A stretch of 64,000 nt of DNA from Bacteroidetes bacterium OLB9 (GTDB lineage: Bacteria; Bacteroidota; Bacteroidia; Chitinophagales; Saprospiraceae). This document shows, one piece after another, positions 33,664-49,084 of the stretch. Below the pieces are notes generated by a model. That model was not told the DNA's origin, searched no databases, and worked only from the letters and a program-made list of their open reading frames with translations. Numbering within the stretch: the stretch's first letter is position 1; each line of letters begins with the position of its first letter. A program made the translations under genes and the position numbers. The stretch is from contig LNBW01000040.1 of the NCBI GenBank assembly GCA_001567255.1, forward strand, positions 1-64,000. The letters are read 5' to 3'.

Positions 33664-33740
33664 AAGGGTTTCGATTAAATTATGAGGTATAATGATATGT
33701 CATATTTGTCCAATCATACAATTAGGTTTTGCATTTTAAC

Positions 33741-33748
33741 TATATTTG
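33741..33748 (+). promoter_or_regulatory. -7 box ahead of the PUL regulator (TATATTTG)
   Basis: TAnnTTTG match on the plus strand, 17 bases before the ATG at 33766. It supports that start over the one at 33682. Confidence 0.45.
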
Positions 33749-33765
33749 CTTGGTCAATGATGTTT

Positions 33766-36522
33766 ATGAACCGTGTAAAATGCTTTATTACTATTTTTTG
33801 GGTGGTGGCTATGACTATTTGCAATGGGCAGCCTGTACCTAATCTGGTCAACTTTAATCCCACAGATTATAAGGCGCATCCACAAAACTGGTCAATATCA
33901 CAAGACAATCAAGGATGGATCTATGCGGGCAATACCGATGGATTGCTTGTATTTAATGGGACCAGGTGGATGCGATACTATCTGCCTGGTACGAAAACTA
34001 TTCGTTCGGTGTACATTGATAAGGACCGTATTTACACTGGAGCCTATGGCGAATTTGGGTACTGGACTAGAGATGTCTGTGGCGATCATACATATCATAG
34101 CTTGCTGGATTTGATACCAGACCATCTTTTAGATAAAGAGGAAGTTTGGAATATAACTGCCAATAATGGTAAAATCTATTTTCAGTCATTTTCTGTCTTG
34201 ATGGAATACGATGGCAATAAAGTGACATCTATTCAGCTGCCCGGCACATTGATGTTTCTCCAGATAGTGAATGATAAGAAGCTCATTCCAATCATTGATA
34301 GTGGCATATTTGAATTACGTGGAGAAAAGGTGGAGAAATTACCCGGTACTGAGTTTTTTGCTGATAAATCTGTTATAGGGATCATTCGCCATCCTGAGGA
34401 ATCTGACGCCTTTTTGATCGCTACAAGTGTCCATGGTGTCTATACCTGGAAAGATGGCAAGGTTTCTTTATGGATGCCTCAGTTAAAAGCAGTACTTTCA
34501 TCGGCACAAGTGAATAAGATAATTATTTCTACTACTGGTGATATCATCATCGGTACTATCAGGGCTGGTGTGTTGATAATTTCAAAAAGCGGACAATTAA
34601 AATATCAGGTCAATACTTCGGATGGGCTTCAAAATAATACAGTACTTTCTTTAGCACTTGATATGAATAATCAGCTTTGGACAGGCCTCGACAAGGGTAT
34701 CAGTAGAATATCAATGGACGACTTCCTTCTAAGATTTAAAGACGTGTCTGGTACATTGGGAGCTATATATTCGGTTGTAAGTACTTCTAAAGGATATTAT
34801 ATTGGTACAAACCAGGGTGTATATTTTGTGAGTGCTAATAATGCTAAAGTGGATGTATTGTCCAGTAATTTTAAACTTATAAATGGATCTCAAGGACAGG
34901 TATGGCAGCTATTAAAATCAGGTGATGATGTCATATGCGGTCATAATGATGGTACTTTTCTTATTCATGGGGATGAATTTATAAAAATATCTGATATTAC
35001 AGGTGGTTGGTTTAATTTGCTTATAGAAGAGAATCGATTGCTTCAGGGTAATTACACCGGACTTGCACTTTTTGAAAGGGTGAATGGTACTTGGAAATTG
35101 CAACATAAGATAGAAGGTTATCATCAGCCTGTCCGACAAATAGTGCAGCGCAATAAAAATCAATTTTGGATAATAGGACCTAATACCGGCCTAGCCCTAA
35201 TCACTCTGGGTGATGAATGGAAGAATGTAGTGGATATCAAGAAGTATGGTGTTGAACAAGGACTTCCATCAAATTTACATATAGAAATGGAGTCTTTTAA
35301 GGGCAATCTTAGGATAGATGATGGCCATCTTCATCTCGTATATCACGAAGCGTCTGATTCTTTTGCAGAAGATAAGACATGGAAGGATGAACGAGCATTT
35401 TATTTTAGACAAATCAACGACCGTGTTTTTGCAAAAATTTATTCTAGTTCGATTGAGATTGTCCAGCCTGCAGATACGATCGTGCTCCCGTTAAGATTGA
35501 ATCAAGAAGTGAATAATGTTATTGCACTTGACGAAGGCAGACTTGCTTTGTGCCTTCAAGATGGATTTGCAATAATCAATTTGAAAGAAAGTAAAACACT
35601 GGATACTGGTATGATTCTCGTCGATCAGGTTATAATGGGAGACAGATCCTATTGTATTTCTGAGCCAAGTGACTTGGAGCTCAAAGCTGGTTTTAATGAG
35701 GATATATCTTTCTTTTTTTCCCAGCCGATCAGCGAATATTCTGCTTCTCAATTCTTTTATAGAATCCTTCCAGGTAATGAACAATGGCTTGACACTCGTA
35801 ACCCAGGCCAAATTACACTTGAAAAACTAAGAGAAGGTAAGCATTCGATTCAGATTACGGATGGTTATAACCACGCAGAAGTCAGTTTTGAAATCATGCC
35901 ACCCTGGTATAGAACGTGGTGGGCCATACTGTTGATGATATTGGGAGTTATTGCATTGATGATTGCTGTAAACAGATATATCCGGTATCAGGTAGAGTTG
36001 AAAAAGGGTCAGCTAGAACAGGAAAATCAAAGGCTCCTCCGTGAAAAATTTATTCAGATGGAAAATAGTCGATTGACTCAGGAAAATATTAATAAAAGCA
36101 AAGAATTGGCAAATACCACCATGCATTTAATTCGGAAAAACGAGTTGCTTCAGGATATTAAATCAGAACTCAATGAAATCAGAAAAGCTGGAGATGCTTC
36201 TTTGTCTTCTAAAGAATTTCAAGTAATCATAAAGCAAATAAATGAAAATCTTACTGTAGAGCAGGACACGAATTTATTCAATGCTAACTTTGAGGAGGTG
36301 CACAAAATGTTCTTTAAAAAACTAAAGGCGGAATATCCAATGCTGAAAATGGATGATCTGAGGCTTGCTGCTTATCTGAGAATGAATTTCAGCTCCAAAG
36401 AAATTGCTCCATTATTTGCATTGTCTATCAGAGGGCTGGAAAATAAACGCTATAGGCTGAGGAAAAAAATGAATCTTCCTTCTGACATAGATCTAAATGT
36501 TTTTTTTGGAGATTACGTTTGA
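33766..36522 (+). CDS. Membrane-anchored triple-tyrosine (Y_Y_Y) sensor regulator with LuxR-type HTH
   Basis: 918 residues from the ATG at 33766 (signal-anchor MNRVKCFITIFWVVAMTICNG). The frame is open 28 codons further upstream, but the promoter box at 33741 favours this start. The periplasmic part is a Reg_prop-type propeller (blades such as GNTDGLLVFNG, IGTIRAGVLIISKSG, LWTGLDKGISRI), followed by a Y_Y_Y domain (QFFYRILPGNEQWLD). A transmembrane helix (WWAILLMILGVIALMIAV) follows, then a coiled coil and a C-terminal LuxR-like helix-turn-helix (DDLRLAAYLRMNFSSKEIAPLFALSIRGLENKRYRLRKK). No histidine-kinase domain is present, so it is a one-component sensor that would bind DNA while in the membrane. 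It lies just upstream of susC and most likely controls that locus. Confidence 0.85.
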   Translation: MNRVKCFITIFWVVAMTICNGQPVPNLVNFNPTDYKAHPQNWSISQDNQGWIYAGNTDGLLVFNGTRWMRYYLPGTKTIRSVYIDKDRIYTGAYGEFGYWTRDVCGDHTYHSLLDLIPDHLLDKEEVWNITANNGKIYFQSFSVLMEYDGNKVTSIQLPGTLMFLQIVNDKKLIPIIDSGIFELRGEKVEKLPGTEFFADKSVIGIIRHPEESDAFLIATSVHGVYTWKDGKVSLWMPQLKAVLSSAQVNKIIISTTGDIIIGTIRAGVLIISKSGQLKYQVNTSDGLQNNTVLSLALDMNNQLWTGLDKGISRISMDDFLLRFKDVSGTLGAIYSVVSTSKGYYIGTNQGVYFVSANNAKVDVLSSNFKLINGSQGQVWQLLKSGDDVICGHNDGTFLIHGDEFIKISDITGGWFNLLIEENRLLQGNYTGLALFERVNGTWKLQHKIEGYHQPVRQIVQRNKNQFWIIGPNTGLALITLGDEWKNVVDIKKYGVEQGLPSNLHIEMESFKGNLRIDDGHLHLVYHEASDSFAEDKTWKDERAFYFRQINDRVFAKIYSSSIEIVQPADTIVLPLRLNQEVNNVIALDEGRLALCLQDGFAIINLKESKTLDTGMILVDQVIMGDRSYCISEPSDLELKAGFNEDISFFFSQPISEYSASQFFYRILPGNEQWLDTRNPGQITLEKLREGKHSIQITDGYNHAEVSFEIMPPWYRTWWAILLMILGVIALMIAVNRYIRYQVELKKGQLEQENQRLLREKFIQMENSRLTQENINKSKELANTTMHLIRKNELLQDIKSELNEIRKAGDASLSSKEFQVIIKQINENLTVEQDTNLFNANFEEVHKMFFKKLKAEYPMLKMDDLRLAAYLRMNFSSKEIAPLFALSIRGLENKRYRLRKKMNLPSDIDLNVFFGDYV

Positions 36523-36639
36523 TACCGCTTTTGCCGGTGTGTATATTATAGGACTTGCTTTTAAAAACGCACCCAATTCTCAAAAGTGTAGTCTATGTTT
36601 ATTCGATAAACTCGGGTATTTTACATAAAAAATTAAGCT

Positions 36640-36659
36640 TGGCGTAGTTGTGGCGTAGT
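36640..36659. promoter_or_regulatory. Direct repeats with 11-bp period, candidate operator for the PUL regulator
   Basis: Two exact copies of TGGCGTAGT at 36640-36648 and 36651-36659, starting 11 bases apart (one helical turn). They lie about 32 bases ahead of a -7 box (TAAATTTG, 36691) and 108 bases before the susC start. Confidence 0.5.
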
Positions 36660-36690
36660 GTGTTTTGCTTAATGATATTCAAATATTTGT

Positions 36691-36698
36691 TAAATTTG
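36691..36698 (+). promoter_or_regulatory. -7 box of the susC promoter (TAAATTTG)
   Basis: TAnnTTTG match on the plus strand. A TTTTG at 36663-36667 is 23 bases upstream, slightly wider than usual. The leader to the ATG at 36767 is about 60 bases. Confidence 0.5.
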
Positions 36699-36766
36699 CC
36701 GTGGGTACGGTGTTGTTGAGTGTGTAATGATGTTTTGGCAAATTATTCAATGCAAAATGGATATTT

Positions 36767-39754
36767 ATGACTTTAAAATTTTTCTCACTTCTTGCTACAT
36801 TAATAGTTTTTCTCTCATTTGATGCAATGTCTCAAGTCAATGGAGTAGTGAAAGACGTAAATGGCGAAACCTTAATCGGTGCTGCAGTAAAAGTAAAAAA
36901 TACATCAAAAGGAACATTGACAGATATCGATGGAGGCTTTCAAATTGATGCTAACCCGGGTGATATTTTGTCTGTGTCCTATATTGGTTATAGTGATATC
37001 GATATTCCGGTGACGACGCAGCAATATTATGAAATCATCATGCAAGAATCAGACATCATCCTTGACCAAGTGGTTGTGGTTGGTTATGGCACTCAAAGAA
37101 AGGTGGATGTGACCGGCTCAACTGTAAGTGTCAAAGGAGAAGAGCTAGCTAAGCAACCAGTAATGACTGCTACCCAAGCGCTTCAGGGGAAAGTCGCCGG
37201 TGTACAAATCTTAGGAAGTGGTAAGCCAGGCGAGTCTCCTACAGTGAGAGTCAGAGGTGTCGGTACTGCTTTGGCAGGAACGACGGCTTTATTTGTTGTG
37301 GATGGCGTGCTGACGGATGATATCAGTAATATCAACACATCAGATATAGTGAGCATGGATGTACTTAAGGATGCATCATCGACCGCCATTTATGGAGCAC
37401 GTGGCGCTAATGGCGTTATAATCATCACCACTAAAAGAGGCACAACGGGTGCTACAAAGATTAATTACAACAATTTTGTTGGTTATAGAAATGCAACGAA
37501 TATCGTAAAAATGGCCAATGCATCTGAATATGCAAATTATGCTTCATCAGCTACAGGTCAGACTGTTGTGGCAGGTGACGTGAGTACCGATTGGTACAGA
37601 GAGATTCTTCGCAATGCATTTGTTCATAATCACAATTTATCTATATCAGGCGGTACTGAAAAGATGTCGCATTTTTTGGGGTTTGGTTATCTGGATGAAG
37701 ATGGTATCGTATTGAATAATAATTTTAAAAGGCTTGATGTACGGGCCAATTTGGATTATGATCTCTTTACTTTTCTTAAAATCGGGCTGACCAGTTCCTA
37801 TTCAAATTCCATAAATAAAGATGTTAATTTAGGAGCAGCTTATAATAATGCTTATCGGGCTGCACCGATCATTCCCGGTAAGGTAGATGGTAGGTATGGC
37901 AATACTTCTCAGTATCAGAATGTCGGTAATGCAATACTTGATTTAAGTAATAATGATATAAGAAATTTGGGTAACAGACTTCAGGCATCTGCGTATGCAG
38001 AGATTGTGCCTTTGTCAGGTCTTAAGTATCGTTCGATGATAGGTCTGGATCGCAATAATTACAATAATAGAAGTTATAATTATCAATTTCTCAATGATGA
38101 AACGACCTTTCTAACTTCAGGTGGCAATCAAGTGAATCGCCAAAGTTATCTGAATGTCTTTAATGAATACAATTTCCGTTGGGTATGGGATAATATTGTT
38201 ACTTATGAAACCACGTTTGACAAACACAGATTTACTTTCCTAGCAGGTACTACTGCCGAAGCTTTTAATGGTAATTGGTTTTCAGCTTCTCGCAAGGATG
38301 TACCCGCTGTTAAGGATTTGTGGTATATTAATACAGGCGATGCCAATACATCTGTAAATAGCGGAGGTGGAGATGCATGGGCTAGAAACTCTTATTTAGG
38401 ACGTCTCAATTACAACTATGGTGATAAGTATTTATTTACAGGTACAATCAGGCGTGATGGCAGCAGCAGGATTGCTCAGGAAAACCGATGGGGATGGTTT
38501 CCTTCTTTTGGTGTAGGATGGGTAGTGACAGGTGAAGATTTTATGAAAGACTTTACATTACTGGAAACGCTGAAGTTGCGAGCCTCCTGGGGTAGAGTAG
38601 GAAATGACAGAATCCCTTCCGACGCCTTCACTGTGACGATAACTCCTAATCAGGCATATCCTTTTGGAGGTGGTATCGCCGTCAATGGAAGTGCCATCAC
38701 ACAGGTCAAAGATCCGAATTTAAAATGGGAAACAACAGAGGAAACAGACCTCGGTATTGATTACGCTTTGATGAAAGGTAGGTTGTATGGAGAATTTGGC
38801 TTTTATACGAAGACAACGCGAGATTTGTTGATTAATGTCAAGCTACCTGCTACTGCAGGAGATGAGGATGGAGTTATCCTGACCAATGCTGCATCCATCA
38901 AAAATACGGGTTTTGAAGCAGCAATCAACTGGAGAGATGCAGTTTCGTCAAAGCTTTCGTATAGGATAGGTGCTAATATAACGCTGAATAAAAATGAAGT
39001 GACCGGACTGAATGGCGGCGAACCCATCCTGGATGGAGGTGTAGGTGCTGCCCAGATATATACCACTAAAACTGACAACGGACAGCCTGTAGGCGCATTT
39101 TATGTTTATCAAGTGTTAGGCGTGTTTCAAAATGAAGAAGAAATTAAGTCTTATCAGTCTGCGGCAGGGCAAGTGATCCAACCGGATGCATCACCAGGTG
39201 ATTTTAAGTATCAAGATTCCAATGGTGATGGTCGTATTGATGACAAAGACCGTGTATTTATAGGTTCTTATCAACCCAAAACCTACTTTGGACTCAATGC
39301 AGAAGTCAATTATGGCGCTTTTGATTTGAGTTTTGACATTTACGGTAATGTTGGCAATTATATTTACAATGGTAAAAAGGCTTTGCGTTTGAGTGGCTTG
39401 GACAACATTGAAAAATCACTTGCTTATGGTAGGTGGACACCAGGATCAGGCATTCAGGATGAGCCTAAAGCCAACTCTGGTTATTTACCGGCTTCTACCT
39501 ACTATATCGAGTCAGGCGACTTTGTACGGTTAAACAATGTAACCCTTGCTTATAACCTACCTGAATCAATGCTAGGAAAAGCACATATAAATAGCGCTAA
39601 AGTTTTTATCACAGGTCAGAATTTATTAACATTAAAAAAGTTTACTGGCTTTTCCCCTGAATTATCAGGAGATTCACCGACACGAGCTGGGATTGAGCTT
39701 AATGCTTATCCTACGACGCGTACGATTGCAGCAGGCGTTAATGTCAGTTTTTAA
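36767..39754 (+). CDS. susC: SusC/RagA-family TonB-linked outer-membrane transporter
   Basis: 995 residues: signal peptide (ending SFDAMSQ, about 23), a carboxypeptidase-regulatory-like domain (VNGVVKDVNGETLIGAAVKVKNTSKGT), a TonB-box region DQVVVVGYGTQRK, a plug (VDVTGSTVSVKGEEL to GVIIITTKRG) and the large barrel. SusC proteins import oligosaccharides held by their SusD partner, which is encoded 17 bases downstream. The neighbouring glycosidases point to beta-1,2-glucan fragments. Expression is probably controlled by the sensor regulator upstream. Confidence 0.95.
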   Translation: MTLKFFSLLATLIVFLSFDAMSQVNGVVKDVNGETLIGAAVKVKNTSKGTLTDIDGGFQIDANPGDILSVSYIGYSDIDIPVTTQQYYEIIMQESDIILDQVVVVGYGTQRKVDVTGSTVSVKGEELAKQPVMTATQALQGKVAGVQILGSGKPGESPTVRVRGVGTALAGTTALFVVDGVLTDDISNINTSDIVSMDVLKDASSTAIYGARGANGVIIITTKRGTTGATKINYNNFVGYRNATNIVKMANASEYANYASSATGQTVVAGDVSTDWYREILRNAFVHNHNLSISGGTEKMSHFLGFGYLDEDGIVLNNNFKRLDVRANLDYDLFTFLKIGLTSSYSNSINKDVNLGAAYNNAYRAAPIIPGKVDGRYGNTSQYQNVGNAILDLSNNDIRNLGNRLQASAYAEIVPLSGLKYRSMIGLDRNNYNNRSYNYQFLNDETTFLTSGGNQVNRQSYLNVFNEYNFRWVWDNIVTYETTFDKHRFTFLAGTTAEAFNGNWFSASRKDVPAVKDLWYINTGDANTSVNSGGGDAWARNSYLGRLNYNYGDKYLFTGTIRRDGSSRIAQENRWGWFPSFGVGWVVTGEDFMKDFTLLETLKLRASWGRVGNDRIPSDAFTVTITPNQAYPFGGGIAVNGSAITQVKDPNLKWETTEETDLGIDYALMKGRLYGEFGFYTKTTRDLLINVKLPATAGDEDGVILTNAASIKNTGFEAAINWRDAVSSKLSYRIGANITLNKNEVTGLNGGEPILDGGVGAAQIYTTKTDNGQPVGAFYVYQVLGVFQNEEEIKSYQSAAGQVIQPDASPGDFKYQDSNGDGRIDDKDRVFIGSYQPKTYFGLNAEVNYGAFDLSFDIYGNVGNYIYNGKKALRLSGLDNIEKSLAYGRWTPGSGIQDEPKANSGYLPASTYYIESGDFVRLNNVTLAYNLPESMLGKAHINSAKVFITGQNLLTLKKFTGFSPELSGDSPTRAGIELNAYPTTRTIAAGVNVSF

Positions 39755-39771
39755 CCATTAAATCTAAAGTT

Positions 39772-41301
39772 ATGAATTCAGTTTATATAAAAAATCTGAT
39801 TGTTATAGTTTCTTTACTTTTATTGAATGCATGTAGCGAAGATTTTCTAGAAATACCGGTTCAAGGTGCGGCTACAGCTGAGTCTGATCCTGCACTTGCA
39901 GAGAAGCTGGTGACCGGTGTGTATAATAGTTTGATATCTGGTGATGCTTTCGGCAATGGGGATGCGCATGGTATCGCATTTATTTCATTGACCAATATCA
40001 TTTCTGACGATGCAGATAAAGGAAGCACGCCTAATGATCAAATAGGAATTATTGGCGAACTGGATAATTTTACACATACACCTACCAATGTATTTGTTGG
40101 CTCGATATGGAAAGGTCACTATAATGCTATATCACGATGCAATCAAGCACTTAAAGCATTGGAAACGGCCTCTGTTGATGATACAAAGAAGCAACAATTT
40201 ATAGGTGAGGTCAGATTTATCCGTGGATACTATTACTTCAATCTGGTTAGGTGGTTTGGTGGTGTGCCCGCAGTATTGAGGGTGCCTGAAAGTGCAGCAG
40301 ATGCTAACAGTGATGACGCTTTTCGTACTAGGGCCTCATCAGAAGAAATTTATAATATTATCATCAATGATTTACAGTATGCGGTTGATCACCTTCCTTT
40401 GAGAAATGCAACACAAAAAGGCAGAATCAATAAAGGGACGGCAGAAGGTATGCTGGCTAAAGTGTATATGTATCGCAAAGATTGGCAAAAAGTATTTGAT
40501 CTTTCCTCCGAAGTCGTCAATAGCGGCCAGTTTGCACTTTTAAATGACTATGCTAAAATATGGCGTTTCGAAGGTAATAATAGTGTAGAATCCATGTTTG
40601 AAATTCAGACAGGTACTTTTAATAATACAGATTTTGGAGTACGTGGTTATTGCGTTTGGCAAGGACCACGTGTGGGTGGAAAAGGAGGATGGACTGATTT
40701 GGGATTTGGATTTTGTACGCCTAGTGGGAATCTTGTTCAATCTTATGATCCTGCGGACACCAGACGATTATCCACTGTGATTGAAATTGATAATTCAGAA
40801 ACCCATAAAGGCACGATATTGTATGACGGTTATAGGATTCCTAGTAAGGACAGTATCGAGAACCTTTATTATAATTACAAAGCCTATCATAGTGAATTGA
40901 GAAAAGGCGAACCGTATTTGGGCAATAGAGATAATAAACAAAAAAACATTCAAATATTGAGATATGCAGATATCTTGCTGATGCAGGCAGAAGCAGCTAA
41001 TGAGCTTGGCCAACCGGACATCGCTATAAGTAATCTCAATATGTTGCGAGCAAGAGCGGGACTTGCACCAGTAAGTATTGCTGGTGGAACAGCACTAAGA
41101 GAAACAATATGGAATGAAAGGAGATTTGAACTTGCTATGGAACATGATCGTTTTTTTGATATAGTACGACAAGGTAGAGCTGCTGAAATTATGAATGCCG
41201 TCGGTAAGCACTTTGTCAAAGGTAAGCATGAACTGCTTCCGATACCTGCCTTGCAGATAGAACTTAGTGGAGGCAGAATGGAACAAAACCCGGGTTATTA
41301 A
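39772..41301 (+). CDS. susD: SusD/RagB-family surface glycan-binding lipoprotein
   Basis: 509 residues with a lipoprotein signal peptide (LLLLNACSEDFL, Cys21). The usual SusD helices and TPR-like repeats follow, including NQALKALETASVDDTKKQQFIGEVRFIRGYYYFNLVRWFGGVP, and the C-terminal segment AEAANELGQPDIAISNLNMLRARAGL...WNERRFELAMEHDRFFDIVRQG. It caps the SusC barrel and binds the glycan. The 17-base spacing to susC shows co-transcription. Confidence 0.95.
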   Translation: MNSVYIKNLIVIVSLLLLNACSEDFLEIPVQGAATAESDPALAEKLVTGVYNSLISGDAFGNGDAHGIAFISLTNIISDDADKGSTPNDQIGIIGELDNFTHTPTNVFVGSIWKGHYNAISRCNQALKALETASVDDTKKQQFIGEVRFIRGYYYFNLVRWFGGVPAVLRVPESAADANSDDAFRTRASSEEIYNIIINDLQYAVDHLPLRNATQKGRINKGTAEGMLAKVYMYRKDWQKVFDLSSEVVNSGQFALLNDYAKIWRFEGNNSVESMFEIQTGTFNNTDFGVRGYCVWQGPRVGGKGGWTDLGFGFCTPSGNLVQSYDPADTRRLSTVIEIDNSETHKGTILYDGYRIPSKDSIENLYYNYKAYHSELRKGEPYLGNRDNKQKNIQILRYADILLMQAEAANELGQPDIAISNLNMLRARAGLAPVSIAGGTALRETIWNERRFELAMEHDRFFDIVRQGRAAEIMNAVGKHFVKGKHELLPIPALQIELSGGRMEQNPGY

Positions 41302-41370
41302 TCGTATGTAATAGTTTTTTTTAATATTTTAAATGTTTATACCTATTTTTTCACACTAAAATTATTTAAA

Positions 41371-42234
41371 ATGAAGTCTAAATTTTTTGGTATTTTAATG
41401 GTTTTTGGCTTTGCTATGGGCCTTGTTTTGAACACTACTTCGTGCAAGAAGGAAGACGATAAACTTCCACCAATTGACGGATATAATAATGCAGACGAAG
41501 TGGCTGCTTCCAATCTTATAGCTTACTGGCCATTGAATGGTGATGGTAAAGAAGCTAAGTCAGGCGCTAGTCCGACTACTGTAAAAAATGTAACTTACGT
41601 GGATGGTAAAAAAGGAAAAGCAGCTAAACTTGCCGAGGGACTTTTGGGTTATGATGAGATTGCAAATCTGAACAGCTTGCCAAATATGACCGTATCTCTT
41701 TGGGCTAACTTTGACAACAATGGGTCTGCAGCTACAGTATTTTTCTCTATGTCTAGACCTAATGAGTGGGCAGGCAATATCAACTTGATGTCTGAGACCG
41801 GTTGGAAAAAGGCAGGTGTTGATACACTTGTACTGAAAGGTCTTGTAGTCACTAATGTAGCAAACAATCCTTCATTCCAGGATTCAAGAAATGAGCCGTC
41901 TAAAGGAGGTGTTCAGGCTGCATCAGGCATCAATAAGTGGAATCACATCGTGATGACTTGGGATGGAGCAACCTCCAACTTTAAGATTTATCAAAATGGT
42001 GTAAAAGTAAGCAATCCTGAATGGGAGCAAAGAGGAACAACTGGCCCACTGAATTTCTTCACACCTACTAAGCCTATTATCGGAGGATATGGTACTCTAC
42101 TTCCAGGTGGTGGCACTCCAGAGGCATGGCAAAAAGCAATGACAGGTATGGTAGATGAGGTTAGAGTGTACAACAAGGCCTTGAGTGATGCAGAAATAGG
42201 CTCATTATTTAAGCTAGAATCTGCTGGCAGATAA
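41371..42234 (+). CDS. LamG/concanavalin-fold lipoprotein at the SusE position
   Basis: 287 residues with lipoprotein signal (LNTTSCKKEDD, Cys25). A laminin-G-like jelly-roll domain follows (LIAYWPLNGDGKEAKSG, MTVSLWANFDN, WNHIVMTWDGATSNFKIYQNG, GMVDEVRVYNKALSDAEI). These features match the LamG_3 type seen in many Bacteroidota surface proteins. In a locus of this kind it would act as an extra surface glycan-binding protein. No catalytic residues are expected. A strong hairpin follows at 42250-42289. Confidence 0.83.
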   Translation: MKSKFFGILMVFGFAMGLVLNTTSCKKEDDKLPPIDGYNNADEVAASNLIAYWPLNGDGKEAKSGASPTTVKNVTYVDGKKGKAAKLAEGLLGYDEIANLNSLPNMTVSLWANFDNNGSAATVFFSMSRPNEWAGNINLMSETGWKKAGVDTLVLKGLVVTNVANNPSFQDSRNEPSKGGVQAASGINKWNHIVMTWDGATSNFKIYQNGVKVSNPEWEQRGTTGPLNFFTPTKPIIGGYGTLLPGGGTPEAWQKAMTGMVDEVRVYNKALSDAEIGSLFKLESAGR

Positions 42235-42249
42235 TAATTTATTAAGGTT

Positions 42250-42289
42250 AAAATTGTATAATGGGGACAATTCTCCATTATACAATTTT
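42250..42289 (+). terminator. Strong hairpin between the binding-protein and glycosidase genes (terminator or attenuator)
   Basis: Perfect 15- to 16-bp stem AAAATTGTATAATGG / CCATTATACAATTTT with a short loop, followed by T residues. The next gene begins 10 bases later, so it may limit but not abolish read-through. Confidence 0.8.
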
Positions 42290-42299
42290 TGATGTTTAA

Positions 42300-43949
42300 A
42301 TGGGGCGATTTCTGTATAGTACATCTTTTTTGATCATGTTGACAATGCTTTTTGTATCGTGCAGCAAAGGAGATGATATGGTAAAAAGTAGCCCAGTATT
42401 TTCGTGTAAAAATATTGTCATTGATGGTAGATATGGCGCTCATATCGCAGGCGTGCCACTGAAGCCAATTATAACAGCTACCTTTGATGATAAGGTGAAT
42501 ATTGGCACTTTAAAAACAGCTATTTCTGTCAGTGGACCCGCCCAAAAGCCTATTGAACTGATTTTTACTCCGACGAATCAGGACTCTACAGTTCAGATTC
42601 AGCTGGTCGATGCTCTGAATTCAATTACTAATTATGTTTTTAGCATTAATACTTCTTTAAAGTCAGCAGATAACAGATCACTTTCCGGCGATTATACTAT
42701 CCAGTTTACTACCATAATCGACACACTTGATAAACGCCCCAGAATATCGGATGATCAATTGATGGATACTATACAGCGACAAACGTTTAGTTATTTCTGG
42801 GAGTTTGCTCATCCGGTTTCAGGTATGATCAGGGAAAGGAATACATCAGGAGATTTGGTCACAACTGGCGGTACCGGATTTGGAATCATGGCTATAGTTG
42901 CTGCTGTTCATAGAGGATTTATCAGTCGTGAGGACGGTTTAAACCGTATTATTACTATAGCTGATTTTCTGGAGCAAAAGACCACCAGATACCATGGTGC
43001 ATTTGCCCACTGGATAGATGGTGCTACAGGAGCGACAATACCTTTTAGTTCAAAAGATGATGGTGGCGACCTCGTTGAAACATCGTTTCTAATAGCTGGA
43101 TTGCTCTGTGCTGCAGAATATTTTGACCGCTCTGAAACTACTGAACAACACCTTCGGGAGACGGTTCAACGGCTATGGCATGATGTTGAATGGGACTGGT
43201 ACACTAATGGTAAAAATGTACTCTATTGGCATTGGTCTCCTAAGTACAATTGGGAAATCAATCTTCCTATCAAAGGCTGGAATGAAGCCTTGATTACCTA
43301 CATACTCGCTGCTGCTTCGCCGACGCATGGCATTCAGCCTGAAGTATATCATCAAGGGTGGGCATCAGGCGGACAAATGAAGAATGGAAATTCTTATTAT
43401 AATTATACATTACCTCTTGGCCCGGCATTGGGCGGACCGCTTTTTTTTGAGCATTATTCCTTTCTAGGTATCAATCCTATGAAATTGCAAGATCAATACG
43501 CTGATTATCGGTTGCAGACAGTGAACCATACGCTCATTAATCGAGGCTACTGCATCCGGAATCCACAAAATTATTATGGTTATAGCGATAAATGTTGGGG
43601 ACTCACCGCTAGTGATACACGCAATGGTTATACTGCCCATAGCCCGACTAATGATAAGGCTGTAATTACACCTTCAGCGGCATTGTCGTCATTGCCATTT
43701 ACACCCGATGAATCATTAAAGGCTATGCGTTTTTTTTATTACAAACTTGGGGATTTTATTTTTGGAAAATACGGTTTTTATGATGCCTTTAGCCTTCACT
43801 ACGGATGGAAGTCCAATACATGGCTAGCTATCGATCAAGGACCGATTATGATTATGATTGAAAACTATAGAAGTGGCCTGATATGGGAATATACTATGAG
43901 AAATAAAGATATTAGAAATGGGCTTGATAAGCTTGGATTTACATACTAA
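42300..43949 (+). CDS. GH144-type endo-beta-1,2-glucanase lipoprotein (glucoamylase-like family)
   Basis: 549 residues. Lipoprotein signal (MLFVSCSKGDD, Cys22), then an Ig-like Big_5 domain (about 35-140, ITATFDDKVNIGTLKTAISVSG...LSGDYTIQF). The (alpha/alpha)6 domain follows: RQTFSYFWEFAHPVSGMIRERN, TTGGTGFGIMAIVAAVHRGF, DLVETSFLIAGLLCAAEYFD, WHWSPKYNWEINLPIKGWNEALITYILAAASPTH and DAFSLHYGWKSNTWLAIDQGPIMIMIENYR. This is the family that includes the Chitinophaga beta-1,2-glucanase. It would cut beta-1,2-glucan at the surface. A paralogue follows after 14 bases. Confidence 0.82.
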   Translation: MGRFLYSTSFLIMLTMLFVSCSKGDDMVKSSPVFSCKNIVIDGRYGAHIAGVPLKPIITATFDDKVNIGTLKTAISVSGPAQKPIELIFTPTNQDSTVQIQLVDALNSITNYVFSINTSLKSADNRSLSGDYTIQFTTIIDTLDKRPRISDDQLMDTIQRQTFSYFWEFAHPVSGMIRERNTSGDLVTTGGTGFGIMAIVAAVHRGFISREDGLNRIITIADFLEQKTTRYHGAFAHWIDGATGATIPFSSKDDGGDLVETSFLIAGLLCAAEYFDRSETTEQHLRETVQRLWHDVEWDWYTNGKNVLYWHWSPKYNWEINLPIKGWNEALITYILAAASPTHGIQPEVYHQGWASGGQMKNGNSYYNYTLPLGPALGGPLFFEHYSFLGINPMKLQDQYADYRLQTVNHTLINRGYCIRNPQNYYGYSDKCWGLTASDTRNGYTAHSPTNDKAVITPSAALSSLPFTPDESLKAMRFFYYKLGDFIFGKYGFYDAFSLHYGWKSNTWLAIDQGPIMIMIENYRSGLIWEYTMRNKDIRNGLDKLGFTY

Positions 43950-43963
43950 TCATTGGATAGGAT

Positions 43964-45322
43964 ATGAGATTTTTCACGTTGTTTCTTTTATGTATGTTAG
44001 GTATGAGCTGCAGCCCTACCCGAAAAACAGAAATAGAGTATTCACGCCACGAATTAAAAAAACGTACTTTTGATTATTTTTGGAATGTGGTGGACTCTAG
44101 TTACCAGACATGGGACAGATATCCACAGCAGACATTTTCAAGTATTGCTGCTACAGGGTTTGGGCTTACGGCGTACCCTTTGGGCATAGAAAATAAATTT
44201 ATCACCCGTGATGAAGGTGCTCAACGTGTATTAAAGACACTGGATAATCTATGGAGAATGCCTCAAGGGCCCGGAACGTCAGGCACAGCAGGATATAAGG
44301 GTTTTTATTATCATTTTCTTACGATCGACCAAGCACACCGGTATAAACAAGTAGAACTTTCTTCAATAGATACAGGTCTTCTTATGGCTGGCGTATTGAC
44401 GTGTATGAGTTATTTTGACAAGGATAACAGTGTTGAGAATAAAATTCGTACACTGGCAGACTCACTCTATCTGCGTGTGGACTGGAACTGGATGATGAAA
44501 CCCAACGGTATCATGAGCATGGGTTGGCATCCCGAGTCTGGATTTATCGATAGTGAATGGGCAGGATATAATGAAGCGATGATATTACTTATCATGGCCA
44601 TGGGATCACCGACACACCCTACGCCGGATGATACCTGGAGTAAATGGTGCAGAACCTATGATTTTGATACCTTTTACGGCTATAAAAGCGTGCAATTCGA
44701 TCCTCTTTTTGGCCATCAATACAGCCATATTTGGATTGATTTTCGTGGTATTCAGGACAGTATTATGGAGGTACACCATGACGACTACTTCAATAATTCG
44801 GCCCAAGCTACCCTTGCCAACAGGTCATACTGTATTGCTAACCCTATGCAATGGAATGGATATGCCGAAAATCTGTGGGGATTATCTGCATGTGACGGCC
44901 CAGGAGATGACCGCCTAATGTTAGATGGTAAAGAACGTCAATTTTTTTCCTATCGTGCGCGAGGTGCCAGTAGTGTTCAGGTCGTGGATGATGGTACTAT
45001 AACGCCTACTGCAGCAGGAGGATCATTTCCATTTACACCTGAGAAATCAGAAGCTTGCTTAAAAAATATTTGGGAGACTTATTATCATGAGATGGTGGGT
45101 GAATATGGGTTGAAAGATGCTTTTAATCTGACATATATAACTCCTGAATTTCCTAATGGATGGTTTGATAATGATTATATCGGAATAGATCAGGGAGCTA
45201 TTTTGCTACAGATAGAGAATCATGAAACGGAATTAATATGGAATATTATGAAAAAGAATCCTTATATTATTTCCGGTTTGAAAAAGGCAGGATTTAAAGG
45301 CGGATGGCTGGATCAAAAATAA
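43964..45322 (+). CDS. Second GH144-type glycosidase lipoprotein
   Basis: 452 residues with a lipoprotein signal (LGMSCSPTRK, Cys16) and only the (alpha/alpha)6 domain. Motifs are parallel to the preceding protein: KRTFDYFWNVVDSSYQTWDRYP, AATGFGLTAYPLGIENKFITRDE, SSIDTGLLMAGVLTCMSYFD, WAGYNEAMILLIMAMGSPTHP, YGLKDAFNLTY and IGIDQGAILLQIENHETELIW. It differs from the first by lacking the Ig-like domain and by a different active-site surround. It may act on shorter sophoro-oligosaccharides. That division of labour is inference. It is 14 bases after the first copy and 25 bases before the GH3 gene. Confidence 0.78.
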   Translation: MRFFTLFLLCMLGMSCSPTRKTEIEYSRHELKKRTFDYFWNVVDSSYQTWDRYPQQTFSSIAATGFGLTAYPLGIENKFITRDEGAQRVLKTLDNLWRMPQGPGTSGTAGYKGFYYHFLTIDQAHRYKQVELSSIDTGLLMAGVLTCMSYFDKDNSVENKIRTLADSLYLRVDWNWMMKPNGIMSMGWHPESGFIDSEWAGYNEAMILLIMAMGSPTHPTPDDTWSKWCRTYDFDTFYGYKSVQFDPLFGHQYSHIWIDFRGIQDSIMEVHHDDYFNNSAQATLANRSYCIANPMQWNGYAENLWGLSACDGPGDDRLMLDGKERQFFSYRARGASSVQVVDDGTITPTAAGGSFPFTPEKSEACLKNIWETYYHEMVGEYGLKDAFNLTYITPEFPNGWFDNDYIGIDQGAILLQIENHETELIWNIMKKNPYIISGLKKAGFKGGWLDQK

Positions 45323-45347
45323 ATTTACAACATAAATTCAAAAGGAT

Positions 45348-47657
45348 ATGCGGAAGTTGACCATTTTTATACTTTGTTGCTTAACGATCAATGTTTTTGC
45401 ACAGAAAATTAATAGCAAGAAGAATGACAATTATGGTGTACAATATTACAAATCGCTAGGTGCTTCCGATAGGGTAGCTCAGCTGATGGTTAAGATGAAC
45501 ATCGATGAAAAGATAGGCCAACTCAACTTAATCACTCCCGGAGGCACCGTGACAGGAGAGATCGTGAGCAAGGATGTGAATACCAAAATACGCAATGGAC
45601 AAGTCGGAGGTATTTTTGGGATTCGGGGTGCTGATAAACTCCGAAAAGTTCAGGAATTGGCCGTAAAAAAAAGCAGGTTGGGTATTCCTTTGATGGTTGG
45701 TATTGATGTGATTCACGGACATCAGACGATTTTTCCGATACCTCTAGGTCTATCCTGTACCTGGGATATGGATTTGATTGAAACATCAGCAAGAATAGCC
45801 GCAAAAGAAGCGACTGCAGATGGGTTGATGTGGACATTTTCGCCTATGGTTGATATAGCCAGAGACCCTCGATGGGGACGTATAGCTGAAGGCAGTGGTG
45901 AAGATCCATTTTTAGGATCAAAAATTGCGGCCGCAATGGTAAGAGGATATCAGGGAAAGGATCTTTCTTCTTCATCCACCATGCTGGCATGTGTCAAGCA
46001 CTTTGCATTGTATGGTGCTGCCGAAGGAGGTAGAGATTATGGCACGGTTGACATGAGTAAGGTGAGAATGATGAATGAATACATGCCACCATTTAAAGCA
46101 GCGATTGATGCAGGCGTAGGGTCTGTTATGACTTCCTTCAATGTGGTAGATTATGTGCCTGCTTCCGGTAGTAAATTTCTATTTAAAGAATTACTTCGGG
46201 ATAAATGGGGTTTTGACCAATTGGTAGTGACAGATTATACTGCTATTAATGAGATGATAGAGCATGGCACAGGTGATTTACAAGCGGTTGCAGCACAAGC
46301 GATGCATGCATCTATAGACATGGATATGGTAGGTGAGGGTTATCTGACTACACTAAAAAAATCGCTCCAAGAACGTAAAGTCAGTCAAACAGAAATAGAC
46401 AAGGCGTGTATTCGAGTATTAATGGCTAAAGAAAAGCTAGGTATTTTGGATGACCCATACAAATATTTTGATACTACTCGTGCTGAAAGAGATATTTTGA
46501 CGGATGAAAATCGTGCATTTGCCCGAAAAATAGCCGCAGCATCTTTTGTCCTACTTAAAAATGAAAACCACATCCTGCCACTCAGCAAAACAGCCAAAAT
46601 AGCACTGATAGGACCACTTGCAGACAGCCGGCGTAATATGCTCGGTACCTGGAGCGTAAGCGGTGACCATGAAAAGGCGGTGACTGTACTGGAGGGTCTG
46701 AAAAATGTCATTGACGCTGAAGGCCAAATATTATATACTAAAGGTGCAAATATTTCTGATGACCCGGACTTTGCACACAGAGTCAATGCCTTCGGAGAAG
46801 AAATCTCCATAGACAAGCGTTCTCCTGATGAGATGATAGAAGAAGCACTTAACATTTCAGCATCAGCAGATGTTATTGTAGCAGTAGTAGGAGAGGCAGC
46901 AGATATGACTGGCGAAGCTTCCAGCATGACAAATATAAGCTTACAACCAGCACAGAAGAAGCTACTAAGAGCGCTAAAAAATACCGGAAAGCCTATCGTT
47001 ATGGTACTTTACAATGGTCGCCCTATGGTGATTAAGGAAGAGATGGAAAGCATGGATGCTGTACTGGATGTTTGGTTTGGAGGCACAGAGGGCGGCAATG
47101 CTGTTGCGGACGTACTTTTTGGGGATGTAAATCCGGGAGGTAAGCTGACCACTTCTTTTCCCGTCAATGTAGGTCAAATACCGGTGTATCATGCCATGCT
47201 TAATACAGGCAGACCGGACTCTGGGACACAAGCCAAATTTAGATCTAATTATCTTGATGCGCCCAATGCACCATTGTTGCCTTTTGGATTTGGATTATCT
47301 TATACTACCTTCGAATATGGAAAACCCATAATTAATAGTCCTACGATGAAAAAGGATGGCAGCATCACGGTAAGTATAAAAGTTAAGAACACCGGTACTA
47401 TTGGTGGACATGAAGTAGTTCAAATGTATATCAGAGACAAAGTAGCGAGTATCAGTCGTCCCGTTAAAGAACTCAAAGGATTTAAGAAGATATACCTAGA
47501 TCCTGGTGAGCAGCAAGAAGTTACATTCACAATAACGCCCGACTTACTGATGTTTTATAATGATCACCTTGACTACGTCCTGGAGCCAGGAGAGTTTGAG
47601 GTGATGGTAGGCACAAATTCACGAGATGTTCAGACGGTTAATTTCGTTCTGGAATAA
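45348..47657 (+). CDS. bglX: GH3 beta-glucosidase (BglX type)
   Basis: 769 residues with a signal peptide (ending NVFAQ, about 19), so periplasmic. The N-terminal GH3 barrel (LMVGIDVIHGHQTIFPIPLGLSCTWD, ARDPRWGRIAEGSGEDPFL, CVKHFALYGAAEGGRDYGTVDMS) carries the nucleophile Asp296 in VVTDYTAINEMI. The alpha/beta sandwich (AASFVLLKNENHILPLS, VAVVGEAADMTGEASSMT) supplies the acid/base region, and a fibronectin-III-like C-terminus follows. It would release glucose from the oligosaccharides made by the GH144 proteins. A GH3 beside GH144 and SusCD is the layout known for beta-1,2-glucan (sophorose) use. Confidence 0.92.
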   Translation: MRKLTIFILCCLTINVFAQKINSKKNDNYGVQYYKSLGASDRVAQLMVKMNIDEKIGQLNLITPGGTVTGEIVSKDVNTKIRNGQVGGIFGIRGADKLRKVQELAVKKSRLGIPLMVGIDVIHGHQTIFPIPLGLSCTWDMDLIETSARIAAKEATADGLMWTFSPMVDIARDPRWGRIAEGSGEDPFLGSKIAAAMVRGYQGKDLSSSSTMLACVKHFALYGAAEGGRDYGTVDMSKVRMMNEYMPPFKAAIDAGVGSVMTSFNVVDYVPASGSKFLFKELLRDKWGFDQLVVTDYTAINEMIEHGTGDLQAVAAQAMHASIDMDMVGEGYLTTLKKSLQERKVSQTEIDKACIRVLMAKEKLGILDDPYKYFDTTRAERDILTDENRAFARKIAAASFVLLKNENHILPLSKTAKIALIGPLADSRRNMLGTWSVSGDHEKAVTVLEGLKNVIDAEGQILYTKGANISDDPDFAHRVNAFGEEISIDKRSPDEMIEEALNISASADVIVAVVGEAADMTGEASSMTNISLQPAQKKLLRALKNTGKPIVMVLYNGRPMVIKEEMESMDAVLDVWFGGTEGGNAVADVLFGDVNPGGKLTTSFPVNVGQIPVYHAMLNTGRPDSGTQAKFRSNYLDAPNAPLLPFGFGLSYTTFEYGKPIINSPTMKKDGSITVSIKVKNTGTIGGHEVVQMYIRDKVASISRPVKELKGFKKIYLDPGEQQEVTFTITPDLLMFYNDHLDYVLEPGEFEVMVGTNSRDVQTVNFVLE

Positions 47658-47740: not shown

Positions 47741-49084
47741 ATGACATTTAAGGAGTTGAATCTCAATAAACCGCTTTGGAATGCTCTTGACGATGCCGAC
47801 ATCACGCATCCGACAACGATCCAGCACAAAGTATTTCCCGTAGCAATGTCGGGTCGAGATATAATAGGTATAGCCCAGACCGGAACGGGGAAAACCCTGG
47901 CGTACCTGCTACCAATTATGCGTATGTGGACATTTAATAAATCACGCCATACTACGGCTTTGATTATCGTCCCGACGCGTGAGCTTGTTGTTCAGGTAGT
48001 GGAAGTGGCGATGATGCTTGGAAAATATATGAATATTGTCATCCGTGGTGTCTATGGTGGTACGAACCTTAAAACTCAAGCCTACGAACTTGCTGAAGGC
48101 TGTGATATTTTGGTAGGAACGCCGGGAAGGTTGCTTGATTTGGGCTATCATGGTTCGCTCAATTTGAAAGCTGTCAAAAAGCTCGTAATTGACGAAGTAG
48201 ATGAAATGCTGGCACTCGGTTTTAGGTCGCAGTTGGAGCATATTCTTGATTTGCTGTCTGGAAAGAGGCAAAACCTCATGTTTTCAGCGACGATAACAGA
48301 AGAGGTAGAGAAGTTAATAGAGGCATTTTTCAACAGTCCTGAAAAAATTGAAGCAGCACCTGCAGGTTCTCCACTATCTAATATTAATCAGTCACTTTAT
48401 CGTATTCCTAATTTTAATACTAAGGTCAATCTATTGCAGCTTTTACTACGCCAAAATCAAAGTTTAACTAAAGTGCTTGTTTTTGTAGCGACCAAAGCAC
48501 TGGCTGATGAATTATATGACCGCATCAATGATGAATTCCTGGATCAAATAGGTATCATTCATTCTAATAAAGACCAAAATTTCCGCTTTAATGCCGTCAA
48601 CCGCTTTCAGGATGGCACATTAAGAGTATTGATAGCTACAGATATTATCGCTCGTGGGCTAGATATAGAAGATGTCTCCCATGTGATTAATTTTGATTTG
48701 CCGGATGAACCCAATAGTTATATTCATCGGATAGGCCGGACTGGGCGTGCAGATAAACGCGGAGAAGCGATTGCTTTTGTCGGAGATCTGGATGTTCAAT
48801 GGCTTGAAGAGATTGAAGCATTGATGCAGTACCAAATTCCTGTAGCAACACTTCCTGAAGACCTCGTCATATCTGATGTACTTACAGAATCAGAAATTCC
48901 TAAAGTACATATGAAGAATACACTCGGAAAGCTACCGAAAATCAATGATGAAGGTAGTGCTTTTCATGAGAAAAAGGCGAAAAATCAAAAAAGCAATGTA
49001 AAGATACGACACAAAGATAAAATGCATGCAAAATACGGCAAACCAAAAACCAGAGGTCAGAAGCCGAGAGGAAAAAAGAGATGA
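47741..49084 (+). CDS. DEAD-box ATP-dependent RNA helicase (RhlE-like)
   Basis: 447 residues with the helicase motifs in order: Q motif (THPTTIQHKVFP), motif I AQTGTGKT (about 45-52), Ia PTRELVVQV, GTPGRLLD, motif II written DEVD rather than DEAD (LVIDEVDEMLALGF), SAT (MFSATITEE), ATDIIARGLDIEDVSHVINFDLP and motif VI HRIGRTGRADKRG. A basic C-terminal tail (KKAKNQKSN...KPKTRGQKPRGKKR) would bind RNA, as in ribosome-assembly or cold-response helicases. It stands alone with its own promoter box. Confidence 0.92.
   Translation: MTFKELNLNKPLWNALDDADITHPTTIQHKVFPVAMSGRDIIGIAQTGTGKTLAYLLPIMRMWTFNKSRHTTALIIVPTRELVVQVVEVAMMLGKYMNIVIRGVYGGTNLKTQAYELAEGCDILVGTPGRLLDLGYHGSLNLKAVKKLVIDEVDEMLALGFRSQLEHILDLLSGKRQNLMFSATITEEVEKLIEAFFNSPEKIEAAPAGSPLSNINQSLYRIPNFNTKVNLLQLLLRQNQSLTKVLVFVATKALADELYDRINDEFLDQIGIIHSNKDQNFRFNAVNRFQDGTLRVLIATDIIARGLDIEDVSHVINFDLPDEPNSYIHRIGRTGRADKRGEAIAFVGDLDVQWLEEIEALMQYQIPVATLPEDLVISDVLTESEIPKVHMKNTLGKLPKINDEGSAFHEKKAKNQKSNVKIRHKDKMHAKYGKPKTRGQKPRGKKR

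What the first reader, a model, noticed from the sequence alone, without database searches (positions are those of the whole stretch)
33766..47657. A complete locus that looks dedicated to beta-1,2-glucan
The sequence reads sensor regulator, SusC, SusD, LamG lipoprotein, two GH144-type lipoproteins and a periplasmic GH3. GH144 contains beta-1,2-glucanases, and a GH3 next to it is known to act on sophorose-type sugars. Two different GH144 copies in tandem suggest a split between polymer and short oligomers, or between cyclic and linear glucans such as those made by rhizobia.
Basis: partly seen in the sequence, partly recalled or inferred. Interest (0 to 1): 0.52.

Follow-up and report, generated by a model that had tools for sequence, protein, structure and literature searches.

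The report
Bacterial gene set eating beta-1,2-glucan
A bacterium of the Saprospiraceae kind carries an ordinary-looking set of seven genes for eating beta-1,2-glucan, a sugar polymer made by other bacteria, and its two look-alike enzymes seem to work on opposite sides of the outer membrane rather than doing the same job twice.

Summary
In detail: 33682-47657 holds regulator, SusC, SusD, LamG lipoprotein, two PF10091 (GH144) lipoproteins and a GH3, in one direction. Both GH144 proteins keep every clan-defining and proposed catalytic residue, but belong to two deeply separated branches: 42300-43949 is CpSGL-type (54% identical to CpSGL), 43964-45322 is XcSGL-type (52% identical to XcSGL, an experimentally shown beta-1,2-glucanase). 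The same seven-gene order, complete or cut by contig ends, occurs in three other assemblies. The genome has no other PF10091 gene, no MdoG/OpgG and no GH94, so scavenging of others' glucan is likelier than turnover of its own. Best reading of the two copies: a compartment split. The first looks surface-exposed (Ig-like spacer, acidic lipoprotein N-terminus), the second periplasmic. Across 70 related loci, all 50 with two or more GH144 pair a long or tailed copy with one lacking those features (46 by length alone; in 4 the second copy's addition is an esterase domain). No evidence bears on cyclic versus linear. The locus looks like a mosaic of two locus types. Beta-1,2-glucan loci are already known and abundant, so this is a new member of a known kind. 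An associated esterase family in relatives is the most novel lead.

The parts
33682..36522 (+). Membrane regulator: predicted beta-propeller sensor, Ig-like domain, transmembrane helix, coiled coil and C-terminal DNA-binding-like helices; no histidine-kinase family found
   Evidence: No Pfam/NCBIfam at E<=0.001; only four weak matches at E<=1, best Reg_prop 0.025; AlphaFold model pLDDT 81.8; Foldseek top hits BT4663, BT4673, BT3049 sensor domains
36767..39754 (+). SusC-type TonB-linked outer membrane transporter
   Evidence: TIGR04056 876.8 bits, TIGR04057, Plug
39772..41301 (+). SusD-type surface glycan-binding lipoprotein (CSEDFLE N-terminus)
   Evidence: PF07980 and PF14322; sequence
41371..42234 (+). 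LamG/ConA-like lipoprotein, likely second surface glycan-binding protein (CKKEDD N-terminus)
   Evidence: PF13385; acidic lipoprotein N-terminus
42250..42289 (+). 18-pair hairpin between binding/transport genes and enzyme genes; possible leaky terminator or mRNA stabiliser
   Evidence: RNA fold z -6.31 for 42232-42302, and hairpins at the same place in L076 (z -4.23) and L078 (z -2.66), not in L063 (z -0.12)
42300..43949 (+). GH144, CpSGL-type, lipoprotein with N-terminal Big_5 spacer; predicted surface endo-beta-1,2-glucanase
   Evidence: PF10091, PF13205; PDB 4gl3 3.5e-157, CpSGL 5gzh 3.5e-144; 54% identity to CpSGL; catalytic residues kept; CSKGDD N-terminus
43964..45322 (+). GH144, XcSGL-type, single catalytic domain, lipoprotein without acidic export motif; predicted periplasmic endo-beta-1,2-glucanase
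   Evidence: PF10091; PDB 8xul XCC2207 1.1e-135; 52% identity to XcSGL; catalytic residues kept; CSPTRKT N-terminus
45348..47657 (+). GH3 beta-glucosidase, predicted soluble periplasmic; sophorose and beta-1,2-oligoglucan to glucose
   Evidence: PF00933/PF01915/PF14310; BglX NF011678 916 bits; PDB 3u48 4.7e-289, 5xxl 6.4e-282

Best explanation
A polysaccharide utilization locus for scavenged beta-1,2-glucan (bacterial periplasmic or cyclic glucan from other organisms). Shown by sequence: gene content, GH144 and GH3 membership, intact catalytic residues, conserved order. Inferred: (1) the CpSGL-type GH144, held on the cell surface on an Ig-like spacer, cuts glucan beside the SusD and LamG binding proteins; (2) SusCD imports the fragments; (3) the XcSGL-type GH144, facing the periplasm, cuts fragments further to short oligomers; (4) the GH3 releases glucose; (5) the regulator senses an oligosaccharide in the periplasm and switches on the operon. 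The two GH144 copies divide the work by compartment, not by cyclic versus linear substrate.
For: Both proteins in GH144; [quoted passage not shown] Position E211 (CpSGL numbering) is Glu in 151 of 151 homologues, F268 Phe in 151 of 151, Y330 Tyr in 150 of 151 (one gap); position 142 is Glu in 75 of 75 CpSGL-type and Asp in 76 of 76 XcSGL-type. The genome has 2 PF10091 genes, both here, no PF04349, no PF17167. Seven-gene order in L076, partial in L075 and L078. Compartment split: at least one acidic residue at +2 to +6 after the lipoprotein cysteine in 37 of 43 SusD, 11 of 12 LamG, 20 of 27 long CpSGL-type, but 6 of 43 short copies of either type (Fisher p 5e-7). Of 50 loci with two or more GH144, 46 pair an extended or tailed copy with a bare copy; in the other 4 the addition on the second copy is an alpha/beta-hydrolase, not a secretion tail.
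Against: No activity, binding or expression data for these proteins. The motif of the first GH144 (C-S-K-G-D-D) is shifted by one from the optimum C-X-K-(D/E)2-X found in Capnocytophaga (PMC5080379), and 7 of 27 long lipoprotein copies have no acid at +2 to +6. Related loci are not independent, so the p value overstates. GH144 also holds an exo enzyme that releases sophorose (PMC8861115; its identity with BDI_3064, PDB 5z06, is recalled), so endo action is not certain.
Confidence: 0.76

Rival explanations
1. The two GH144 enzymes divide cyclic and linear beta-1,2-glucan: one opens rings, the other cuts chains, in the same compartment.
For: Two deeply separated branches with different residues at positions 139 and 142, so different substrate preferences are possible. 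XcSGL comes from Xanthomonas, which makes a ring-type glucan (recalled).
Against: Characterised members of both branches are endo enzymes on beta-1,2-glucan. The short slot is filled by CpSGL-type copies in 14 two-copy loci and by XcSGL-type copies in 28, so the branch does not define the slot.
Confidence: 0.12
2. Endo plus exo: the second GH144 is an exo enzyme that releases sophorose for the GH3.
For: An exo-acting GH144 relative exists (described as releasing Sop2 from non-reducing ends).
Against: The second GH144 is closest to XcSGL, reported as endolytic with the other SGLs, and lacks any N-terminal extra domain, the feature described for the exo enzyme. 5z06 is the weakest of its seven PDB matches.
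Confidence: 0.1
3. The locus serves a decorated or mixed beta-1,2-linked polymer rather than plain beta-1,2-glucan.
For: Marine GH144 loci add a sulfatase (PMC6499787); a GH144 locus with GH35 yielded a beta-1,2-galactosidase (PMC11739564); relatives carry esterase-like and GH43-like genes.
Against: The window locus itself has only GH144 and GH3 enzymes, none for other linkages or substituents.
Confidence: 0.2

Closest known systems
GH144 polysaccharide utilization loci of Bacteroidota (PMC6499787; passages only seen)
   Same: GH144-containing loci in this phylum, named there among abundant locus types that target beta-1,2-glucan
   Different: The passages seen do not describe pairing of CpSGL-type and XcSGL-type enzymes; its supplementary lists were not read
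Ignavibacterium album beta-1,2-glucan gene cluster (PMC8861115; passages only seen)
   Same: Two GH144 genes; the authors already speculate extracellular cleavage, import, then further GH144 cleavage
   Different: There GH35, GH94 and an ABC transporter; here SusCD and GH3
CpSGL, Chitinophaga pinensis GH144 (PDB 5gzh/5gzk)
   Same: First GH144: 54% identity, all catalytic residues
   Different: Window protein has an N-terminal Big_5 spacer; only the crystallised part of CpSGL was compared
XcSGL, Xanthomonas campestris XCC2207 (PDB 8xul)
   Same: Second GH144: 52% identity, Ser/Asp at the positions of CpSGL D139/E142
   Different: Here a Bacteroidota lipoprotein in a SusCD locus, without the C-terminal disordered region described for XcSGL
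Periplasmic beta-glucosidase of PDB 5xxl (BT_3567 by recall)
   Same: GH3, E 6e-282; a beta-1,2-glucooligosaccharide beta-glucosidase from a B. thetaiotaomicron GH144 cluster is described in PMC8861115
   Different: 3u48 is the slightly closer solved relative; specificity of the window protein not tested

Membership tests
GH144 | Sequence match to the family model PF10091 and to founding or characterised members | tested here: met
   248.9 and 249.7 bits against cut-off 27; 5gzh 3.5e-144 and 8xul 1.1e-135. PF10091 is not identical with CAZy GH144; CAZy's own model was not available
GH144 / clan GH-S | E211, F268, Y330 (CpSGL numbering) and an acid at 142 | tested here: met
   Both window proteins have E, F, Y; Glu and Asp at 142 respectively
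GH144 | Hydrolysis of beta-1,2-glucan | not testable with these tools
   Needs purified protein
Sus-type polysaccharide utilization locus | Adjacent susC and susD genes with glycoside hydrolases and a regulator | tested here: met
Hybrid two-component system regulator | Propeller sensor followed by histidine kinase and receiver domains | tested here: not met
   Sensor fold met; no kinase or receiver family even at E<=1. Filed as a one-component membrane regulator
Sophorose-type GH3 beta-glucosidase | Preference for beta-1,2-linked oligosaccharides | not testable with these tools
   GH3 membership met; specificity inferred from neighbours
Bacteroidota surface lipoprotein | Export motif after the lipoprotein cysteine, optimum C-X-K-(D/E)2-X | tested here: inconclusive
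   LamG CKKEDD fits, first GH144 CSKGDD near fit, second GH144 CSPTRK does not fit; motif not calibrated experimentally in this family of bacteria

The most novel reading that the evidence does not exclude
Natural beta-1,2-glucan eaten by these bacteria is ester-substituted, and a particular alpha/beta-hydrolase family is the dedicated de-esterifying partner of GH144. In relatives it is fused to the C-terminus of XcSGL-type GH144 (4 loci), stands alone beside GH144 (7 loci) or sits, degenerate, on a GH3 (1 locus); the window's genome keeps an unlinked copy with a signal-like N-terminus (G000:C54 28436-29194), acting with this locus in trans. Succinyl groups, reported on S. meliloti cyclic glucan, are the guess.
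Probability: 0.2. Interest if true: 0.6.

Novelty: new member of a known kind. Interest (0 to 1): 0.36.

Why it matters
Beta-1,2-glucans matter in symbiosis, infection and osmotic adaptation, yet who eats them is little studied. The locus gives a clean seven-gene test set with two GH144 branches side by side, and the comparison turns 'why two copies?' into a testable rule: one copy outside, one inside, whichever branch fills the slot. The esterase association, if real, would say the natural substrate is substituted.

Tried and rejected
Considered that the second protein might fall in a new family (GH192-GH194) because XCC2207 was its best match; PMC12102758 places XCC2207 (XcSGL) in GH144, so rejected. 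Considered recent tandem duplication; rejected at 32% identity and root-level separation. Considered turnover of the cell's own glucan; no PF04349, no PF17167, no further PF10091 in a 97.1% complete assembly, though an incomplete assembly cannot exclude it. Considered the downstream helicase (47741-49084) as part of the locus; no homologue among the ORFs of the fetched loci apart from the window's own DNA. The simple promoter scan gave 61 sites against 49.1 expected, uninformative. A Bacteroidota-type TAnnTTTG (motif recalled) lies at 36691 before SusC and at 33741 before the regulator's second start; not tested against chance. My ORF caller misses the GH144 in many G+C-rich Xanthomonadaceae loci, so loci L107-L154 were left out of the architecture counts (they stay in the residue counts where called). 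Regex lipobox calls in three tailed CpSGL-type copies are probably spurious.

Full report
What is there. Family scans confirm SusC, SusD, LamG, two PF10091 (GH144) proteins and a GH3. The first GH144 has an N-terminal Big_5 (Ig-like) domain; the second is a bare catalytic domain. The regulator reaches no family at E<=0.001 in Pfam or NCBIfam; at E<=1 its best Pfam match is Reg_prop at 0.025. An AlphaFold model from 21 homologues (pLDDT 81.8, pTM 0.62) matches the periplasmic sensor domains of the Bacteroides regulators BT4663, BT4673 and BT3049. No kinase or receiver domain was found, so I read it as a one-component membrane regulator.

Placement of the two GH144 proteins. Best solved relatives are 4gl3 and CpSGL for the first and XcSGL (8xul, XCC2207) for the second. 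I read parts 1-5 of 11 of PMC12102758: XcSGL is a GH144 enzyme, specific for beta-1,2-glucan among the polysaccharides tried there; clan-defining residues are E239, F286, Y367 (XcSGL) and the likely general base corresponds to E142 of CpSGL. In my alignment of 151 homologues plus four references, position 211 is Glu in 151 of 151, 268 is Phe in 151 of 151, 330 is Tyr in 150 of 151 (one gap). Positions 139/142 are Asp/Glu in 75 of 75 proteins that score best against the first window protein, and Ser/Asp in 76 of 76 that score best against the second. The tree's midpoint root separates the same two sets, with the references on the expected sides (support 1.0 and 0.987). The two window proteins share 32% identity; each shares 52-54% with its characterised relative.

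Target and supply. In the window's own genome (3.16 Mb, 80 contigs, 97.1% complete) the only two PF10091 genes are these. MdoG/OpgG (PF04349) and GH94 (PF17167) gave no match. Cyclic glucan synthases carry PF10091 and GH94 domains (recalled), so none is seen. The glucan is probably taken from other bacteria.

Conservation. Among 198 genomes of the order, 54 have a GH144 at E<=1e-20; 16, the window's included, have an XcSGL-type copy at 52% identity or more, and all 16 also have a second GH144. The one other genome of the same genus in that sample has none. The full seven-gene order is in L076 (a Saprospiraceae assembly) and, cut by contig ends, in L075 and L078. Genes after GH3 differ between the window and L076, which sets the end of the locus after GH3. 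That the window is itself from Saprospiraceae is inferred from these best matches.

Why two copies. I classed the 125 GH144 proteins of the window and loci L035-L106 (duplicates removed, 350 aa or more) by extension and by lipoprotein N-terminus. Three forms appear: copies with a long N-terminal extension, mostly lipoproteins with acidic N-termini; copies with about 100 extra C-terminal residues, which are Por_Secre_tail (type IX secretion) in the 4 such proteins scanned (L080, L052, L101, L098); and bare copies. Of 70 loci, 50 have two or more GH144; 46 of these combine an extended or tailed copy with a bare one. The remaining 4 (L082, L087, L093, L095) are a tailed copy plus an XcSGL-type copy whose C-terminal addition is an alpha/beta-hydrolase (Pfam in the 2 scanned, profile in all 4). 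Of the 20 single-copy loci, many are cut by contig ends. An acid at +2 to +6 after the cysteine occurs in 37 of 43 SusD, 11 of 12 LamG, 20 of 27 extended lipoprotein copies and 6 of 43 bare lipoprotein copies (p 5e-7 for the last two). PMC5080379 (passages) shows that such motifs drive surface exposure in this phylum. Against this reading: 7 of 27 extended copies lack the acid, the threshold is lax and was chosen here, and relatives are not independent. In the window the first copy is CSKGDD, the second CSPTRK. The outside slot is CpSGL-type in most loci but XcSGL-type in 5 (Ignavibacteria-type); the inside slot is CpSGL-type in 14 two-copy loci and XcSGL-type in 28 (14, 9 and 5). The branch does not dictate the place. 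The I. album paper already speculated an outside-then-inside order for its two GH144 genes (passages); the survey here is additional.

A mosaic. In separate trees (GH144) the SusC, SusD, LamG and first GH144 of the window group with loci of a second family of the order (f20; L063, L062 and others, support 0.98 to 1.0). The second GH144 and the regulator group with Saprospiraceae-type loci: with L035 at support 0.98 and 1.0, with L077 at 0.59 and 0.76. The GH3 groups with L065, L067, L068 (support 0.94 to 1.0). Midpoint rooting and limited sampling temper this. It suggests a transport and surface module from one locus type joined to a regulator and periplasmic enzyme from another.

Hairpin. Between LamG and the first GH144 lies an 18-pair hairpin (42250-42289; z -6.31). 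L076 and L078 have different hairpins at the same place (z -4.23 and -2.66); L063 has none beyond chance (z -0.12). It may lower or stabilise enzyme mRNA relative to the binding and transport genes.

Esterase lead. An alpha/beta-hydrolase family with a GLSMG motif recurs in relatives: seven stand-alone genes in GH144 runs, four fusions to XcSGL-type GH144, one degenerate fusion to GH3 that lacks the motif, and two more distant hits (14 hits in all). In the 198 genomes, 33 have a hit of 230 bits or more, and 30 of these 33 also have GH144 (54 of 198 overall; p 2e-17); within the window's family it is 11 of 20 GH144 genomes against 1 of 17 others (p 0.002). The 230-bit line was chosen after seeing the list. 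By reading coordinates, 12 of the 33 lie within 20 kb of a GH144. The window's genome has one unlinked copy (268 bits; L155 9630-10532). Larger polysaccharide-degrading genomes and shared ancestry may explain part of this. The nearest solved relatives are esterases (3doh, 1.2e-70). S. meliloti cyclic glucan is succinylated (title and abstract start of PMC7569799). The listings show, by title and abstract start, no paper on such a partner; most of those papers were not opened.

Verdict. A real, well-formed beta-1,2-glucan locus of a known kind. The surface/periplasm division is a good inference; cyclic versus linear is untested. Interest is moderate, mainly for the rule about paired copies and the esterase lead.

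Noticed in passing
L082 8500-10695, L087 10049-12124, L093 9971-12136, L095 6769-8847: XcSGL-type GH144 fused to a C-terminal alpha/beta-hydrolase (esterase-like), suggesting ester groups on the natural glucan.
   Followed up: partly
L155 9630-10532 (G000:C54 28436-29194): The window's genome has an unlinked homologue of that esterase with a signal-like N-terminus.
   Followed up: partly
L041 8222-10906, L035 3224-6388, L077 3152-6364, L045 7493-11146: Saprospiraceae-type loci carry a roughly 900-1217 aa protein of repeated carbohydrate-binding-like domains with a type IX secretion tail (tail and CBM_4_9 checked in L041 only), near the GH144 genes; 20 loci. The window has the LamG lipoprotein instead.
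   Followed up: partly
L063 6150-7889 and 5460-6131: Genes like L063's GH43-type and GDSL-esterase-type ones recur in loci of the second family (clusters in 12 and 7 loci), roles unknown.
   Followed up: no
L068 9296-12178: A GH3 with an N-terminal copy of the esterase domain that has lost the GxSxG motif.
   Followed up: no
window 42250-42289: Strong hairpin between LamG and the first GH144, position-conserved in L076 and L078.
   Followed up: partly
L096, L098, L101, L102, L103: Ignavibacteria-type loci have two XcSGL-type GH144 in tandem, one with a C-terminal tail (type IX in the two scanned) and one bare.
   Followed up: partly
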